From Pseudoflavitalea sp. G-6-1-2 (GTDB taxonomy: Bacteria; Bacteroidota; Bacteroidia; Chitinophagales; Chitinophagaceae), in NCBI RefSeq assembly GCF_012927185.1, contig NZ_JABBGB010000001.1:62001-126000 (forward strand): a stretch of 64,000 nt of DNA, written 5' to 3'. This document shows, one piece after another, positions 41,824-48,120 of this stretch (position 1 is its first letter; each line of letters begins with the position of its first letter). Made by a program: the position numbers and the translations under genes. The notes below the pieces were generated by a model, which did no database searches, was not told where the DNA came from, and saw only the letters and a program-made list of their open reading frames with translations.

Positions 41824-41834
41824 CCGATAAGCAA

Positions 41835-41881
41835 CATAAAGGAGAAGGGCTGATCATTGTGATCAGCCCTTCTCCTTTATG
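41835..41881. terminator. Very long perfect hairpin between convergent genes
   Basis: 22-bp perfect arms (41835-41856 and 41860-41881, arm starting CATAAAGGAGAAGGG) with a 3-base loop lie between hisS and the convergent lipoprotein gene. The arms end in A/T-rich sequence, which serves both directions. Confidence 0.9.
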
Positions 41882-41903
41882 CGTTGTACAAATCTGCAGA
41901 CAC

Positions 41904-43007
41904 TTATCCAACCAGTTTCTCCAATTCAGGATAAACCGTATAGAGTCCATCCATCTGATCTTTCCCTACATTTCCGAGTTCCTTGTATTTTTTTGTAAGC
42001 TCTGCTGCTTTTGATTTTTCATTATTGTCCATGTAGAAGAAGATGAGCTCAAGCACACCTGCAGCGAACTCAGGTTTGCCGGCAACGAGTCGTTCAAAAT
42101 ATAAACGCTGACCTTCAACATCCTCATCCATCTTGCAAACGAGTCCACGGTAATAATCGAGGAAGGCATCTTTATTGATCAGCGAATCGAGCTGATTGAT
42201 CGACTTCAATGCGCCTTTGTAATCTTTTTTGAGAATGTATGCATCGATCTTCATCAGAAACATATTCGGTGCATTTGGATATGCCTTCTCCAGTTCTTCC
42301 ATGGCAATTGCATACGATTCGTTACTTAATCCGGAAGCAATTTCTACACGGATAACTCTGAACATTTTTTGCGATTTCAACACCTCAGGGAGTTTCTCAT
42401 ACAGATCGTCGGCAGCTTCGTATTTGCCTGCATTCAGTAATTTTCTGATGCTTTTGATATTGCCGATCTGTTCTTTTTCTTCTTTGCTCATGCCATCGTA
42501 ATGATCGCCCATCAGCGCAAGAGCTTGTGCCAATGTGGTGCTGAGGTTTTCTCCGGAGAGATACACAAACATATCGGCGATCTTTATCTGGTCTTTCTTT
42601 TTTACCAGTTCGAGATCGTGGTAATTCACCTTTCCATCTTCACCGAAGAGGCGGAAAATGAGGTGTTGTTTATTATCTTTCTCGTATTGCTTTACCAGTT
42701 CGTAGGAACCGCCTTTGCCCATGGAGTTGATCAGTTCGGTGCCCATTTGACCTTTTTTCACACCTTCGGCCACGCCTCTGGCGAGTACTATTTTGACCTT
42801 GCCTGCTTTGGAAACGCGATCTGCGAGCGCATCTGCATCAAAAGCTTCATTGAATTTAGCAGCGCTTCTTCTTTTGAGGCTGCCTTCCAGGCTGCGTGCC
42901 ATTTGAAGGGCTTCGTCTTTGGTAACCGATTTTTCCTGTTCTCCACAGGCGGCGAGGGCCAGCACAAACAGGAAGCAAATGAATTTTCTCAGGGATAATA
43001 ATTGCAT
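41904..43007 (-). CDS. Lipoprotein with helical/TPR-like C-terminal part
   Basis: 367 residues from the ATG at 43007 (MQLLSLRKFICFLFVLALAAC, lipidated Cys21). Residues ~35-160 are mixed (VSKAGKVKIVLARGVAEGV, YHDLELVKKKDQIKIADMFVYLSG) like a small periplasmic domain. Residues ~190-360 are helical repeats resembling TPR units (LEKAYPNAPNMFLMKIDAYI, YKGALKSINQLDSL). I recognise no specific family. It is a single gene, and the cause of its signal-peptide start choice is the lipobox. Confidence 0.75.
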   Translation of the reverse strand: MQLLSLRKFICFLFVLALAACGEQEKSVTKDEALQMARSLEGSLKRRSAAKFNEAFDADALADRVSKAGKVKIVLARGVAEGVKKGQMGTELINSMGKGGSYELVKQYEKDNKQHLIFRLFGEDGKVNYHDLELVKKKDQIKIADMFVYLSGENLSTTLAQALALMGDHYDGMSKEEKEQIGNIKSIRKLLNAGKYEAADDLYEKLPEVLKSQKMFRVIRVEIASGLSNESYAIAMEELEKAYPNAPNMFLMKIDAYILKKDYKGALKSINQLDSLINKDAFLDYYRGLVCKMDEDVEGQRLYFERLVAGKPEFAAGVLELIFFYMDNNEKSKAAELTKKYKELGNVGKDQMDGLYTVYPELEKLVG

Positions 43008-43414
43008 AGGGGTATTGATTTGAAAAATAAAAGTACAATAATTGTTATGAACGTTCAATCAGGTTATTACGTATGCATATTGGACATTTACGTTCCTGCT
43101 CATTGTTCTTTCCGGCAGTATGCGTATTTTTTTCAATTGAATACTTTTTGCGATCAAACGCATTAAAGTTGGTTCCATCAAAATTATGTCAATGATTTTT
43201 CAAGTGTAATGCAATTATATACAACTCTAAAATACAATCTGAAAATTATTGCGGTTACTACTAGCAATTGTTCCATTTAATTTCAGCAAATTGTACACTA
43301 AGAAAGTAGAGTATCTAACCTCACAAGCCAATTAAAGCGCGCTCTTCAACCACTTTTAGCGGGACAGCCCAAATATCCCATGGCTAATGGTTTGTACCAA
43401 TTGGAGTATGTGAG
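43008..43414. other. 407-bp AT-rich intergenic region
   Basis: No gene, RNA or clear inverted repeat was found. It separates two divergently transcribed genes and must hold the promoter of the oxidative-folding locus, but I could not fix a TTTG-N19-TAnnTTTG pair. Confidence 0.4.
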
Positions 43415-44068
43415 ATGCTTTTCCTGAACTCCCAAATTACAACACTTATGCTGTCTCACACCGAGCCTACAGTAAGGGCTGTTATTGCTTTTCTGAAACT
43501 ACAGAATGTAAAGGTCAACAAACAAACGGTGAATGATACATTGATGGAACATCCGGATTGGCCGGGCCTTCTATCGATCAGCGATTCACTTCAAAAATGG
43601 AAAGTGCCCAATGCAGCTGGAAAAACAACACCTGACCGGCTGGATGACCTGCCTGTTCCGTTTATCATTTACAGCAGAAATTACGATCATCCGGTTGAAA
43701 TTGTTACTGCAGTAAAACCAGACAGTGTAGAAGTGCTTGCCGAGCCATATAGCAAAATAACAGTAAAGACCAGAGACAGTTTTCTGCAGCAATGGGATGG
43801 CGTATATCTCATATCGGAATCCAATGAGTTTTCAGGTGAGCCGGATTATACTGCCAGAAAAAATAAGTATCGCATTCAGCAACTGGTACCGATCATTACG
43901 CTGACTTTGATACTGGCCCTTTCATTTATAACATTTCTTCAGCATCTGCAGGTAACAATTCCATCAGCTGTATACTTTTTGTATATCCAGTTTGCATTAC
44001 TGGTTGCAGGTGTAAGCATCACCTCTTTATTGCTCTGGTATGAGATCGACAAGAACAATCCGTTTTAA
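43415..44068 (+). CDS. C39-like + VKOR fusion, N-terminal part (frameshifted)
   Basis: 217 codons before a stop caused by a frame change. Residues ~12-145 form a peptidase-C39-like domain without its catalytic Cys: HPDWPGLLSISDSLQKWKV, the DHPVEIV strand where C39 has its His, and a QWDGVYLI ending. Two membrane helices follow (VPIITLTLILALSFITFL and IQFALLVAGVSITSLLLWY), the start of a vitamin K epoxide reductase (VKOR) domain. The frame ends at YEIDKNNPF, but the expected continuation LKKVCTGISKGNC lies in the next frame. Adding one T to the TTTT at 44063-44066 restores it. An ATG at 43448 is an alternative start. Confidence 0.75.
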   Translation: MLFLNSQITTLMLSHTEPTVRAVIAFLKLQNVKVNKQTVNDTLMEHPDWPGLLSISDSLQKWKVPNAAGKTTPDRLDDLPVPFIIYSRNYDHPVEIVTAVKPDSVEVLAEPYSKITVKTRDSFLQQWDGVYLISESNEFSGEPDYTARKNKYRIQQLVPIITLTLILALSFITFLQHLQVTIPSAVYFLYIQFALLVAGVSITSLLLWYEIDKNNPF

Positions 44069-45060
44069 AAAAGGTCTGTACAGGCATTTCAAAGGGCAAC
44101 TGCAATGCAATACTTACCAGCAAAGCTGCAAAAGTATTCAGCTGGCTGAGCTGGAGTGAAACAGGATTCTTCTATTTTGCCGGTAGTCTGCTGGTATTGT
44201 GCATTCCATCTACTAGCGGACACCACACAGTGCAATTATTAGGCTGGCTCAATCTGCTGGTACTTCCTTATACAATTTACTCGGTGTACTATCAATGGCG
44301 GATTGCCAGACAATGGTGTATTCTTTGTCTCGGAGTACAGGCAGTAATTGTTTCTGCAGCCATCAACAGTTTCTTTAACTTTCCCCCTTTTGCCCTGCTG
44401 CAGACCTCTACACAATTTCTGCTTATCTCGATACTTCTTTTTATGGTACCTGCTGCTGTATGGTTCAGCATAAAACCTGTAATCAAAAAGCTGCAGGAGC
44501 ATGTAACTACCAAACGGGATTATCTCCGTATCAAATTCAACAATCAGGTATTCTACAATCTCCTGCGGAAAGAAAAGCAGATTATTGAAGAGCCTGAAGG
44601 TTTGGGTATCGACATCGGAAACCCGGATGCAAAATTTACGCTGATCAAAATCTGCAACCCTTATTGTGGTCCCTGTGCCGAAGCACACCCCAGGCTGGAA
44701 AAAGTATTGGAAGAAGTGCCGCAACTAAAACTGAAGATCATTTTTGTGGCTCCCAATAATCCGCGGAATCTGGCCTTTCAGGTAGTACGCCATTTCATGG
44801 CTATTGCGAATGAATACACACCTGAGCAAACAAAACTGGCATTGCGAAGCTGGTATACAGATGATAAAAAAGAATATGAAAAGTTTGCAGCAACCTGGCC
44901 TGTACGTGAAGACCTGAATAAACCCAGCACCTCCATCGAAGCCATGTACAGCTGGTGCAGAAAAAACAACACCAATTATACTCCATCGTATTATCTGAAC
45001 GGGCATCAGTTGCCCGCTGCATACAGCATTGCAGACCTGCAATACTTCCTTTCAGAATAG
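44065..45060 (+). CDS. VKOR + thioredoxin fusion, C-terminal part (frameshifted)
   Basis: About 331 codons in the shifted frame, continuing the VKOR domain of the preceding entry. The loop cysteine pair VCTGISKGNC (C-x7-C) and the active-site CxxC in RQWCILCLG are both present, with four helices in total across the join. After a linker comes a thioredoxin-like domain with CGPC (NPYCGPCAEAHPRLE). This gives a complete electron path for forming disulfide bonds in the periplasm. On its own the only start in this frame is a TTG at 44197, after the C-x7-C pair, so a stand-alone product would be inactive. Confidence 0.75.
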   Translation, partial: LKKVCTGISKGNCNAILTSKAAKVFSWLSWSETGFFYFAGSLLVLCIPSTSGHHTVQLLGWLNLLVLPYTIYSVYYQWRIARQWCILCLGVQAVIVSAAINSFFNFPPFALLQTSTQFLLISILLFMVPAAVWFSIKPVIKKLQEHVTTKRDYLRIKFNNQVFYNLLRKEKQIIEEPEGLGIDIGNPDAKFTLIKICNPYCGPCAEAHPRLEKVLEEVPQLKLKIIFVAPNNPRNLAFQVVRHFMAIANEYTPEQTKLALRSWYTDDKKEYEKFAATWPVREDLNKPSTSIEAMYSWCRKNNTNYTPSYYLNGHQLPAAYSIADLQYFLSE

Positions 45061-45175
45061 TTCCCTGAAAGGAAAGCCTGCGGAACTATACTGTATCCGG
45101 ATGCAGTAGCAGGCAGCCGACGCCTTTGATGCTAAAAGCCAGGGCAATCATTTTTCACTTTTAAAGTACTAACTG

Positions 45176-45397
45176 ATGAATGCAAAAACAATCAACCTTG
45201 CGAATGTTCAGGGCCGTATGTCAAGAAATGAAATGAAAGCCATTATGGCCGGCGATGGACAGGATCCTATCGATGCTCCTTGTTACGCCTGGCCCTGTGG
45301 CGGAGGCGGCTCCGGTACATGCAAAACTGTTCTTAATCCGGATAAAGGCGGATTAGGCTGTAAATGTTCTGTAGATACCGGCGGCAGTTGTGAATAA
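45176..45397 (+). CDS. Leader-bearing six-cysteine peptide 1
   Basis: 73 residues. The leader MNAKTINLANVQGRMSRNE continues MKAIMAG and resembles the double-glycine leaders of Bacteroidota natural-product precursors (LSxxEMxxIxGG, here ending AG). The core has six cysteines in the pattern C-x4-C-x7-C-x12-C-x-C-x7-C and a final Glu, with Gly- and Pro-rich loops. Export by a C39-type ABC transporter and disulfide formation are inferred. It sits 115 bases after the VKOR-thioredoxin gene and 34 bases before peptide 2. Confidence 0.8.
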   Translation: MNAKTINLANVQGRMSRNEMKAIMAGDGQDPIDAPCYAWPCGGGGSGTCKTVLNPDKGGLGCKCSVDTGGSCE

Positions 45398-45431
45398 TTA
45401 ACAACAATTACAAATCATTAAACCTTTTATC

Positions 45432-45653
45432 ATGAATGCTAAGAGAATAAGCCTTGATAACATTCAGGGGCGTATGTCCAGAAATGAAATGAAAGCCATC
45501 ATCGCCGGAAACGGCCAGCAGAACGCACAATTCGGCTGCTACCCCTGGGCATGTGGTCCTCAACGCGAAGGCACCTGCCGGAATGTTTATGATCCCGAGC
45601 AGGGAGGTTTTGGATGCAGATGCTCCGTAGATCCTGGTACGGCATGTGAATAA
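45432..45653 (+). CDS. Leader-bearing six-cysteine peptide 2
   Basis: 73 residues, paralogue of the preceding peptide. The leader (MNAKRISLDNIQGRMSRNE then MKAIIAG) is nearly identical, whereas the core differs except for the six Cys, a CYxWxC start, GTC, GGxGCxCSVDxG and the terminal CE. Conservation of cysteine spacing with variable loops points to a disulfide-stabilised secreted peptide under selection on surface residues. The function (bacteriocin, signal or toxin) cannot be told. Confidence 0.8.
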   Translation: MNAKRISLDNIQGRMSRNEMKAIIAGNGQQNAQFGCYPWACGPQREGTCRNVYDPEQGGFGCRCSVDPGTACE

Positions 45654-45667
45654 GATTCCCAAAACAG

Positions 45668-45715
45668 TGATGCGATCGCGACATGCCATAAATATGGTAA
45701 TTTCAGATCGCATCA
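45668..45715 (+). terminator. Hairpin between peptide 2 and the thioredoxin gene
   Basis: TGATGCGATC and GATCGCATCA (perfect 10-bp stem) enclose a smaller inner hairpin (CCATAAATATGG). It begins 15 bases after the peptide-2 stop and ends 20 bases before the next start. There is only a weak T-rich tail, so it may act as a partial terminator or an RNA-stabilising element. Confidence 0.5.
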
Positions 45716-45735
45716 CATTTCTAAATAACTCTCAG

Positions 45736-47604
45736 ATGAAAACGTTTTTCCTGTGCCTTATCCTTGCTGTTATAAGTGTACAAGCCTTCACGCAACAGTC
45801 GGGCATTGTTGCACAGTCCGGCACCATCGGATACGAGTATACTCCTCCACCAAGATTGGCGTTACCCACAAATATTTTTGCATCATTGGTTTATAAGGTG
45901 GGAGAAGAACATTATTTCGTCAGGAAGCCTTTGCTCAGGAAAAAAGAGAAATATGTGTTCGACTTTTCTCCTCCCGATTCCGTCCGCGCATTTGTATTAA
46001 GCATCACTGATAGCAAACATCAGAACATCGACAATAATCTTGATTCGGGGTATACCGTATTGCGTAAACAATATCTAAATGATAAAGCCGCTGCCAACGA
46101 AGAAGCAGCCTGGTTGCTCAGCTACTTCGCTCCTGCAACACTTGACCTAAACCGCCGGATATTGCCTGCAAAAATGGTAGCGCTGTATGATGAAGCATTT
46201 CAATTATCTCCCGCCATCAAAGAAGACTATAAGACCTACCGCTATTATTTATTTCTGTTGAACCAGCTTAAAGGGGACAGTATACAAGCTCAACTGCTTG
46301 AGTATGCTGCTAAAATGGAAGCCGGCAATGATGAAATATCGTTGGGAACAGCCTTGTACATTCAAAGATTTCTCCGGCAGGATTCCGGTGTCAGCAGAAT
46401 TGAAAATAAAAGTATTGCCCTTTTCCCTTCGGGGGAAGTAGCCCGCGAAAAATACATCAACGCTTTTTATGAGAAGAGAGAACAAACAGCCACTGCCATT
46501 CTGCAGGACGCAAATGAATACGTCCGTTTGTTTGGCGATACATCTTCCCGGATGAAGTATACTTTTTATTCTACCCTTATTGAGTTGTTGCTGATCAAAA
46601 ACCAATTTGATCAGATTGACAAATACGAACCTTACTTAAAAAACAGCATAAACCTCTCCACTCTGTATCATGGGAAGGCCAGACAACTCATCAAAGGAAA
46701 AACACCCACGGACAGCGCACTGATTACCGCGAGGTGGCTTATCCAAAAAACACTCACCATACTCGACTCAAAGAAATCTCTTCTCCATTCTGCACCGGAT
46801 GACCTCACTTTTGTGAAAAGCTGGAACAGAGCAGCAGAAACATATGCCAGAATATTCTTTCTTCAAAACCAATACGATTCTGCTTTTAAATATCAGTCTT
46901 TAGTAGTTAGTCAACCCATCGACCCTGCAACTGCTGATGCATCTGTACAGACTTTGATAACCTATGCATCGAAAGCTAAAGGTGATCAATATGCGAGAAA
47001 ACTGGCAATTGAATTATTGAAATCTGCCAATGCATCCTCTGGCATCCGGGAGGAGCTGAAAATATTAAACACAAAACTTGGCTACGCCGAGACTGCTGAG
47101 TTGGAAGCTTCCGGCAAAAGTTCCGATCTTTCAGAGAGCAAGATGGCACATGCCATCAGGAAACGATTCGGGTCATCCGGTTTCAGAAACTTTTCACTCA
47201 CTGATCTTTCCGGTAAAACCATTTCGCTTTCCTCTTTTTCAAACAAAGTAGTGGTGCTCGATTTCTGGGCTACCTGGTGCGGGCCCTGCCTTGCATCATT
47301 TCCACGTATGCAGGAGGTTATCGGGAAATACAAACAGGATAGCTCCGTAGTATTTCTTTTCATCGACACATGGGAAGACAAATCATTGGAGAAGATGAAA
47401 ATCGATGCAGCAAAGCTGATGAAGGAACGCAAATACGATTTTCAGATATTGCTCGACGATAAGAATGCAGCCAATAACGCCTACAAAGTAGATGTTATTC
47501 CCGAAACCTTTATCATTAACAAAGCGGGTAAGATAGTTTACATGGGCATCGACAATGAAAACATCATCGCTGAAATTGAAAACGCCAAACTGCTGGCCCA
47601 TTAA
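45736..47604 (+). CDS. Secreted TlpA-like thioredoxin-family protein
   Basis: 622 residues from the ATG at 45736 (signal MKTFFLCLILAVISVQAFTQ); the frame extends upstream to 45646, inside the hairpin and peptide-2 stop. Residues ~25-480 are an unassigned region, beta-rich first (YEYTPPPRLALPTNIFASL) and helical later. Residues ~485-622 are a TlpA/AhpC-type thioredoxin domain: FSLTDLSGKTISLSSF, active site WATWCGPC (Cys515 and Cys518), cis-Pro region VDVIPETFIINK. It is a periplasmic thiol-disulfide oxidoreductase, probably linked to the six-cysteine peptides just upstream. Confidence 0.85.
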   Translation: MKTFFLCLILAVISVQAFTQQSGIVAQSGTIGYEYTPPPRLALPTNIFASLVYKVGEEHYFVRKPLLRKKEKYVFDFSPPDSVRAFVLSITDSKHQNIDNNLDSGYTVLRKQYLNDKAAANEEAAWLLSYFAPATLDLNRRILPAKMVALYDEAFQLSPAIKEDYKTYRYYLFLLNQLKGDSIQAQLLEYAAKMEAGNDEISLGTALYIQRFLRQDSGVSRIENKSIALFPSGEVAREKYINAFYEKREQTATAILQDANEYVRLFGDTSSRMKYTFYSTLIELLLIKNQFDQIDKYEPYLKNSINLSTLYHGKARQLIKGKTPTDSALITARWLIQKTLTILDSKKSLLHSAPDDLTFVKSWNRAAETYARIFFLQNQYDSAFKYQSLVVSQPIDPATADASVQTLITYASKAKGDQYARKLAIELLKSANASSGIREELKILNTKLGYAETAELEASGKSSDLSESKMAHAIRKRFGSSGFRNFSLTDLSGKTISLSSFSNKVVVLDFWATWCGPCLASFPRMQEVIGKYKQDSSVVFLFIDTWEDKSLEKMKIDAAKLMKERKYDFQILLDDKNAANNAYKVDVIPETFIINKAGKIVYMGIDNENIIAEIENAKLLAH

Positions 47605-47646
47605 AGAAAGTTCATTGAACGGAGGTAATCGACAGAGATAGAATTT

Positions 47647-48120
47647 CTACTCTCCGAATATCTGCCGCATATGATGATCCATATGATCTGCATAATCATC
47701 GATCCAGAATCCCAGAGTTTTCGTTTCTCCGCTCGGAATGATCACTTCCCAGCTCAATTTTTCTGAAGGTATGTTCGCAATCACATACAGAATCTGCTGA
47801 TTCAATGATACCCACAACTGCAGAATATGATCGAATGGCAACTGCTGATATTGGTTCAGCTTCACCAGATGATCCTGCTGATAGGGCATTATCATATATG
47901 GTTGCGGAAGATATTGTGCATCGGTAAAGCGCTTGAGGTTGTTGATGGCAGAATCCACCAGGTGGCCCAGTATCTCAATCTTCGACCATTTTGCGGGATT
48001 AGGTTTATCCAGCCACTCATCGATCGACAAATCACGCGCACGCAATGGCATATCCAGCACATGACTGGTTAACCGCGTAACGGTGGTAGCAACAGCGGGA
48101 GTTAATAGTCCTTCCTGCAT
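47647..48120 (-). CDS. DinB-family (DfsB-like) putative metal-dependent hydrolase
   Basis: 157 residues. The four-helix DinB fold with its usual metal site is suggested by ILGHLVDSA (His53) and the C-terminal DHMDHHMRQIF (His146, His149 or His150). An NPAKWSKIEILGHL turn before the first His is typical of Bacteroidota members. These proteins bind a divalent metal and some act as thiol-dependent transferases; the substrate here is unknown. It is a single gene, convergent with the thioredoxin-family gene. Confidence 0.9.
   Translation of the reverse strand: MQEGLLTPAVATTVTRLTSHVLDMPLRARDLSIDEWLDKPNPAKWSKIEILGHLVDSAINNLKRFTDAQYLPQPYMIMPYQQDHLVKLNQYQQLPFDHILQLWVSLNQQILYVIANIPSEKLSWEVIIPSGETKTLGFWIDDYADHMDHHMRQIFGE

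What the first reader, a model, noticed from the sequence alone, without database searches (positions are those of the whole stretch)
45176..45653. Tandem leader peptides with an invariant six-cysteine core
Seen directly: two 73-residue ORFs share an almost identical 26-residue leader ending in an AG site. Their cores share only the Cys pattern C-x4-C-x7-C-x12-C-x-C-x7-C plus a few Gly, Pro and aromatic positions. Conserved scaffold with variable loops is the mark of a secreted disulfide-rich peptide family. The leader resembles GG-type natural-product precursors of Bacteroidota. I do not know this cysteine pattern as a described peptide class.
Basis: partly seen in the sequence, partly recalled or inferred. 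Interest (0 to 1): 0.85.

Follow-up and report, generated by a model that had tools for sequence, protein, structure and literature searches.

The report
Disulfide-rich peptide precursors beside VKOR
Two neighbouring small genes appear to encode secreted peptides held together by three disulfide bonds; they belong to a large, little-described family of Bacteroidota peptides that share a leader and a dedicated disulfide-forming enzyme but carry very different, sometimes venom-peptide-like, cores.

Summary
Two intact 73-codon ORFs share a 26-residue leader ending AG (21 of 26 identical) and the same six-Cys spacing. That spacing is invariant only between these two: none of 64 six-Cys cores of related loci repeats it, though 16 share the order C..C..C..CxC..C.

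The ORFs belong to a Bacteroidota cassette: a C39-like/VKOR/thioredoxin fusion gene, then GG/AG-leader peptides, often a TlpA-type thioredoxin and a C39-ABC exporter. In 67 of 78 named loci a leader ORF starts within 600 bp downstream of the VKOR part; 102 of 110 distinct cores have an even Cys number. Cores vary widely. One knottin-order relative is modelled like spider and anemone cystine knots. An EGF-like fold for the window pair is only suggested.

Most likely: precursors of exported disulfide-bonded peptides, probably antagonistic, working like bacteroidetocins. Here the VKOR gene is frame-split and no exporter is adjacent, so the locus may be decaying. The fusion gene is not found in five congeners; three of them lack the whole segment. 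The paper searches made listed no description of the cassette.

The parts
45176..45397 (+). precursor peptide 1: leader 45176-45253 (ends AG), core 45254-45394 with six Cys
45432..45653 (+). precursor peptide 2: leader 45432-45509 (ends AG), core 45510-45650 with six Cys
43415..44068 (+). C39-like domain (catalytic Cys and His not conserved) plus two hydrophobic segments; first part of the frame-split C39-like/VKOR/thioredoxin gene
   Evidence: Pfam PF03412 25.1 bits, cut-off 22; alignment with two true C39 exporters; single-frame proteins of 510-582 aa in 21 of the 23 rows listed
44065..45060 (+). VKOR plus DsbA-like thioredoxin part, in another frame than the previous ORF; loop Cys pair, CxxC and CGPC present
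   Evidence: PF07884 41.4 bits, PF13462 35.9 bits, invariant Cys columns of 22 sequences
45736..47604 (+). protein with C-terminal TlpA/ResA-like thioredoxin domain
   Evidence: PF00578 71.1 bits; a similar thioredoxin domain lies same-strand within 3.5 kb downstream in 39 of 78 related loci
41904..43007 (-). protein with weak TPR similarity (below cut-off), within the segment missing from congeners; role unknown
   Evidence: no match in the five congener stretches fetched
41824..47646 (.). segment between hisS (ends 41823) and a DinB-family gene (47647-48120), probably an acquired island
   Evidence: hisS is directly followed by the DinB gene in 3 of 5 congeners; none of the 5 stretches holds the segment's genes

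Best explanation
The two ORFs are precursors of small exported peptides stabilised by three disulfides. The conserved leader is a sorting tag. The neighbouring membrane protein carries a non-proteolytic C39-like domain (inferred to bind the leader or the exporter complex), a VKOR core and a DsbA-like thioredoxin that make the disulfides with quinone as acceptor; a TlpA-like protein may isomerise wrong pairings; a C39-peptidase ABC exporter cuts after AG/GG and exports the core. The core is a fast-changing module, most likely antagonistic (bacteriocin-like). Shown: gene order, leader conservation, mostly even Cys numbers, conserved catalytic Cys of the VKOR family, constraint on the two ORFs. 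Inferred: processing, export, disulfides, activity. In this genome the pathway may be impaired, because the VKOR gene is frame-split and the only two C39 exporters found lie elsewhere.
For: Leader ORF within 600 bp downstream, same strand, in 67 of 78 named VKOR loci: 33 of 39 used for the leader model, 34 of 39 held out; 75 ORFs in 46.8 kb against 0 on the other strand there, 24 and 8 further downstream, and 15 plus 5 in the upstream bins of 350 kb per strand. Even Cys in 102 of 110 distinct cores; for 4-12 Cys, 102:7 against 296:152 in other small ORFs, Fisher p 5.7e-10, rows related. C39-ABC exporter similarity in 53 of 78 loci, nearly full-length in 37. In 50 within-locus pairs the leader median identity is 0.75 and the core 0.29. 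The C39-like domain lacks the catalytic Cys in 9 of 9 that cover it and the His in 10 of 10. Emticicia plasmid: VKOR, two small ORFs, TlpA, peptidase-ABC, HlyD in a row. Bacteroidetocins use GG leader, thiol oxidoreductase and peptidase-ABC, and change migration on reduction (PMC6671954, passages).
Against: VKOR gene split in the window. No adjacent exporter; whole-genome search finds two other C39 proteins, one in a lanthipeptide (LanB/LanC) cluster and one orphan beside an HlyD-like gene. No peptide, disulfide or activity was measured. Eight of 110 cores have odd Cys counts; 16 further leader-positive ORFs without a clear cut site were left out of that count, and of these 6 have odd and 10 even whole-ORF Cys numbers. 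Small ORFs without the leader and with 4-12 Cys are also more often even than odd. 11 of 78 loci lack a leader ORF within 600 bp. TlpA-like downstream in only 39 of 78 and HlyD in 8 of 78, flank-limited. Two hydrophobic segments precede the VKOR loop Cys in the family, which leaves the membrane side of the C39-like domain unclear.
Confidence: 0.7

Rival explanations
1. A decaying remnant: the peptides were functional in the donor, but in this genome the VKOR gene is broken and no cognate exporter is adjacent, so no mature disulfide peptide is made.
For: Frame split at 44065-44068; 21 of 23 rows have one frame of 510-582 aa. Among exporters, the clade of 37 linked ones (median 55% mutual identity) is represented here only by the LanB/LanC-cluster exporter at 53% median; the orphan is at 30% (three further ABC ORFs without the Cys motif were dropped).
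Against: Both precursors are intact and look constrained. The split lies in a T/A homopolymer run and may be an assembly error; the ORF map shows no other obvious split, but the other genes were not compared with homologues. An exporter of the cognate clade exists elsewhere in the genome.
Confidence: 0.3
2. Radical-SAM or lanthionine-modified RiPP precursors rather than simple disulfide peptides.
For: TIGR04149 (rSAM RiPP) is the only NCBIfam match, 10.6 bits for ORF 1. A LanB/LanC cluster with a same-clade exporter lies 1.8 Mb away. A Parabacteroides plasmid locus pairs VKOR with a LanC-like gene.
Against: Cut-off is 25 bits, and ORF 2 has no match. No modifying enzyme was recognised among the segment's genes that were scanned. 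Even Cys numbers and VKOR pairing fit disulfides.
Confidence: 0.08
3. The peptides act as signals or adhesion-like EGF-type modules on other cells rather than as antibacterial peptides.
For: Cys order C..C..C..CxC..C is that of EGF-like domains (recalled). The only PDB match of each core is the same chain, Micronemal protein 6 (E 7.8 and 1.3; its EGF nature is recalled), and of the 16-row profile a part of P-selectin (E 7.3; that this is its EGF domain is recalled). A predicted hairpin at 22-28/33-38 brackets C3 and C4xC5.
Against: None of these E-values is significant. Foldseek finds no EGF match and the model has pLDDT 66. No Pfam match of any kind for the window cores at E up to 10, with filters that drop most matches above 0.1. 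A relative's core of the same order has a small toxin as its only hit (E 0.42), and an Emticicia ORF of the same order has none.
Confidence: 0.12

Closest known systems
Bacteroidetocins (Bacteroidetes class IIa-like peptide toxins; PMC6671954, passages read)
   Same: GG-type leader, Cys-bearing core, thiol oxidoreductase and peptidase-domain ABC transporter at the locus, Bacteroidota
   Different: 15-residue leader and four Cys there against 26 and six here; one related peptide family there against widely different cores here; here the oxidoreductase is a C39-like/VKOR/thioredoxin fusion (the domain make-up of theirs was not checked); exporter not adjacent in the window
NCBIfam NF047798 leader_Chryseo, 'bacteriocin-like protein'
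   Same: short leader motif; 8 of 8 relatives scanned match it weakly (14.5-18.7 bits)
   Different: cut-off 23.5 reached by none of the 8; the two window ORFs do not match at E up to 1
Inhibitor cystine knot peptides of spiders and anemones
   Same: the same cassette elsewhere carries C-C-CC-C-C cores (12 of 64 six-Cys cores); one modelled core resembles them
   Different: window pair lacks the CC; bacterial leader and presumed export; homology not shown, may be convergence
EGF-like domains
   Same: Cys order (recalled) and predicted hairpin
   Different: no significant sequence or fold match

Membership tests
Bacteroidetocins | GG leader of about 15 residues | tested here: not met
   26-residue leader ending AG
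Bacteroidetocins | four Cys in a 42-residue mature peptide | tested here: not met
   six Cys in 47 residues
Bacteroidetocins | thiol oxidoreductase gene adjacent | tested here: inconclusive
   VKOR-thioredoxin gene adjacent but frame-split
Bacteroidetocins | peptidase-ABC exporter adjacent | tested here: not met
   other C39 genes of the genome lie 1.6 and 1.8 Mb away on the contig; near in many relatives
Bacteroidetocins | five-TM protein gene at the locus | not tested
   no homology search was made for it
Bacteroidetocins | kills Bacteroidales | not testable with these tools
   needs a bioassay
TIGR04149 rSAM-modified RiPP | score over 25 bits | tested here: not met
   10.6 bits for ORF 1, none for ORF 2
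NF047798 leader_Chryseo | score over 23.5 bits | tested here: not met
   no match of window ORFs at E up to 1
EGF-like domain | match to a Pfam EGF model | tested here: not met
   no Pfam match listed at E up to 10
EGF-like domain | disulfides 1-3, 2-4, 5-6 | not testable with these tools
   no coordinates or experiment
Inhibitor cystine knot | C-C-CC-C-C order | tested here: not met
   window order is C-C-C-CxC-C; met by 12 of 64 six-Cys cores of related loci
C39L-VKOR-Trx-linked leader peptides (the family described here) | leader match and position downstream of the fusion gene | tested here: met
   leader model E 4.3e-15 and 1.4e-14; the other two matches in the genome are at E 0.69 and 0.79; the model includes both window leaders, so the score is partly by construction; 119 and 375 bp after the fusion gene

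The most novel reading that the evidence does not exclude
Bacteroidota run a venom-like peptide system: one conserved leader, one dedicated oxidative-folding membrane enzyme that docks the leader through a dead C39 domain, and one exporter serve interchangeable cores of unrelated disulfide folds (knottin, EGF-like and others), swapped by recombination behind the leader and spread on islands and plasmids.
Probability: 0.35. Interest if true: 0.85.

Novelty: new variant of a known kind. Interest (0 to 1): 0.62.

Why it matters
If right, bacteria hold a large set of natural disulfide-rich miniproteins, including knottin-like ones, with their own folding enzyme and exporter. That makes two questions testable: whether a membrane VKOR fusion can fold very different six- and eight-Cys cores because it binds the leader rather than the core, and whether animal and bacterial knottins converged. 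It would also give a production pathway for stable peptides and a new group of candidate bacterial competition factors.

Tried and rejected
Rejected: rSAM RiPP membership (below cut-off); phage or defence origin (PHROGs best 15.4 bits for ORF 1, none for ORF 2; PADLOC none at E up to 0.1); viral spread (no relative confirmed in viral contigs); a near-identical DNA relative on plasmids (none). A Bacteroidota-type promoter pattern (recalled) gave 0 matches in the window, 2.3 expected by chance, and the sigma-70/terminator scan was at chance level, so no transcript ends are claimed. Direct repeats at the ends of the segment: none of 8 bases or more in the two stretches compared. EGF fold for the window core: not supported by Foldseek. 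Positive selection on the core: not supported. Several of the 39 of 394 genome matches look like chance (for example those in frames of about 380-400 aa).

Translational frameshifting to join the C39-like and VKOR frames was considered and set aside by inspection only; it was not computed.

Limits of the counts: the cut-site pattern used to define cores was written after seeing the loci, so only the leader model was held out. The 78 loci are the best 80 of 296 relatives and not independent: for example L116 and L131 overlap on one contig, and L111/L114 and L124/L150 come from one genome each. Alignment A4 used 14 of the 16 C-C-C-CxC-C cores plus the two window cores, leaving out L115 and L121; A6 used 11 of the 12 C-C-CC-C-C cores, leaving out L092.

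Full report
What is there. Two + strand ORFs of 73 codons lie at 45176-45397 and 45432-45653. They align without gaps, 44 of 73 identical; both carry C-x4-C-x7-C-x12-C-x-C-x7-C and a 26-residue leader ending AG. Leader identity is 0.81, core identity 0.49. Between the copies the leader has dN 0.09 and dS 1.01; the core has pN 0.35 and pS 0.82. Both halves look constrained, the core less so; nothing points to positive selection. A leader model of 14 sequences, the two window leaders among them, finds these two copies and otherwise only E 0.69 and 0.79 in the 6.1 Mb genome.

Family. The searched family contains a genome whose contig has the same length as one of 'Chitinophagaceae bacterium PMP191F', and likewise Puia dinghuensis and Niastella vici, so it is taken to be Chitinophagaceae. 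A search with ORF 1 gave matches in 39 of 394 family genomes at E up to 0.1; some are chance, but many are small ORFs with a leader roughly of the form M-x4-[MIL]-[SN]-L-x-[ND]-[IVL]-x-G-[KR]-[LM]-[ST]-R-x-E-M-K-x-[IV]-[MIL]-A-G followed mostly by six or eight Cys. A VKOR-part match at E up to 1e-8 is in 62 of 394.

Neighbours. Upstream is a gene that in relatives mostly encodes one protein of 510-582 residues (21 of 23 rows): C39-like domain, two hydrophobic segments, VKOR, DsbA-like thioredoxin. The VKOR loop Cys pair, CxxC and CxPC are invariant in the 22 aligned sequences. Against two true C39 exporters of this genome, the catalytic Cys position holds no Cys in 9 of 9 C39-like domains that cover it (the tenth was cut short), and the His position no His in 10 of 10, although the window has a His one column earlier. 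The domain is therefore probably non-proteolytic. By recall, the C39-like domain of HlyB is also non-proteolytic and binds substrate.

Test of the association. A scan of named genomes with the VKOR alignment confirmed 296 relatives; 78 loci were kept. A leader model trained on the 39 odd-numbered loci found a leader ORF within 600 bp downstream on the same strand in 33 of 39 training and 34 of 39 held-out loci. There were 75 such ORFs in 46.8 kb, 0 on the opposite strand there, 24 and 8 further downstream, and 15 plus 5 (same and opposite strand) in 350 kb upstream. In all, 127 ORFs passed; 111 had a recognisable cut site. Of their 110 distinct cores, 102 have an even Cys number and 8 an odd one; the 16 left out split 10 even, 6 odd by whole ORF. 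For cores with 4-12 Cys the ratio is 102:7 against 296:152 in other small ORFs of the same loci, Fisher p 5.7e-10; the rows are related, so p is indicative only. Similarity to a C39-ABC exporter occurs in 53 of 78 loci, in one nearly full-length piece in 37; a TlpA-type thioredoxin downstream on the same strand within 3.5 kb in 39 of 78, against 8 upstream; HlyD in 8 of 78. Locus ends limit these counts.

Core diversity. In 50 pairs of precursors from 32 loci the leader median identity is 0.75, the core 0.29, and the leader is the more alike in 47. Six-Cys cores (64) fall into several orders: C-C-C-CxC-C in 16 (the window's order), C-C-CC-C-C in 12, no close pair in 17, others in the remaining 19. 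None has the window's exact spacing. One Ferruginibacter core (L127) has gaps 4, 12, 7, 1, 7 against 4, 7, 12, 1, 7 in the window.

Folds. AlphaFold2 of the window core (16-row alignment A4) gave pLDDT 66 with one hairpin bracketing C3 and C4xC5; Foldseek found nothing meaningful. Sequence searches of the PDB gave a single hit each for ORF 1, ORF 2 and the A4 profile: Micronemal protein 6 twice and P-selectin (E 7.8, 1.3, 7.3), none significant; that the matched parts are EGF domains is recalled. Two further searches with relatives of the same order gave a small toxin (E 0.42) and nothing. EGF-likeness is a lead only. In contrast, a C-C-CC-C-C core from an Arachidicoccus metagenome-assembled genome (L111) gave pLDDT 77, and its ten best Foldseek matches are toxins or an antimicrobial peptide that I know as knottins (class recalled), the first five at probability 0.89-1.00 (best TM 0.61/0.70, E 0.065; no match reaches E 0.001). 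It matches Pfam Toxin_7 at 22.0 bits against a cut-off of 27.

State of the locus here. The C39-like and VKOR parts are in different frames in the window (one ends at 44068, the other is open from 44065). Two-piece matches, broken elsewhere, are seen in a few relatives (G255, G359, G107). The genome has two other C39 proteins: an orphan exporter with an HlyD-like gene beside it (named by inspection, no family scan of that gene) and the exporter of a LanB/LanC cluster. The latter is 53% identical at the median to 37 VKOR-linked exporters, the orphan 30%. So export in trans is possible, but the pathway may be broken. The VKOR part has no match in the five congeners sampled. Between hisS and a DinB-family gene 3 of 5 have nothing, one has other DNA, and in one the DinB gene was not found in the stretch fetched; none of the five stretches has the segment's genes. 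The segment has 42.8% GC against 45.7% for the window. A gain in this lineage is the simplest reading; loss in the others is not excluded. On plasmids 8 records hold a relative of the fusion; the conjugative one carries VKOR, two small ORFs, TlpA, peptidase-ABC and HlyD in order, and both small ORFs have the window's Cys order.

Prior work. Eight searches of the paper library for VKOR, C39, leader, knottin, disulfide, bacteriocin and Chitinophaga terms listed no title or abstract start that describes this cassette. The lists were capped (for example 15 of 76, 20 of 202, 15 of 488, 10 of 14,265 papers), and the library lacks most subscription journals. Closest is the bacteroidetocin paper (passages read). 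A Bacteroidales RiPP survey (PMC10352776) does not mention VKOR, vitamin K or thioredoxin in its main text (term search). At the Emticicia plasmid locus the genes are annotated 'vitamin K epoxide reductase family protein' and 'hypothetical protein'.

Conclusion. The finding is real and is the visible tip of a large, core-diverse, leader-defined peptide family with its own disulfide enzyme. It works, by inference, like bacteroidetocins; it is not a member of that family by the features tested.

Noticed in passing
window 44044-44110: The C39-like/VKOR/thioredoxin gene is split between two frames at a T/A run; most relatives are in one frame. Real break or assembly error cannot be told apart here.
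   Followed up: partly
window 41824-47646: The segment between hisS and a DinB-family gene is missing from the five congener stretches examined; in three the two genes are directly adjacent.
   Followed up: yes
L166 6546-13093 (own genome, about 1.95 Mb): Class I lanthipeptide cluster (LanB, LanC) whose C39 exporter is of the same clade as the VKOR-linked exporters.
   Followed up: partly
L111, L136, L066, L072 (related loci): VKOR-linked leader peptides with knottin Cys order; three tandem knottin-order precursors in L136.
   Followed up: partly
L178 (Parabacteroides distasonis plasmid NZ_OY725766.1): VKOR fusion with a small Cys-rich ORF, LanC-like protein, two glycosyltransferase-like genes and a peptidase-ABC exporter: a possible hybrid pathway.
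   Followed up: no
C39-like/VKOR family, alignment A2: Two hydrophobic segments precede the VKOR loop Cys in the family, which leaves it unclear on which side of the membrane the C39-like domain lies.
   Followed up: no
L140: A record titled Phycisphaerales MAG holds the VKOR fusion with a C39 exporter match 319 bp downstream and no leader ORF within 600 bp; horizontal transfer or binning error.
   Followed up: no
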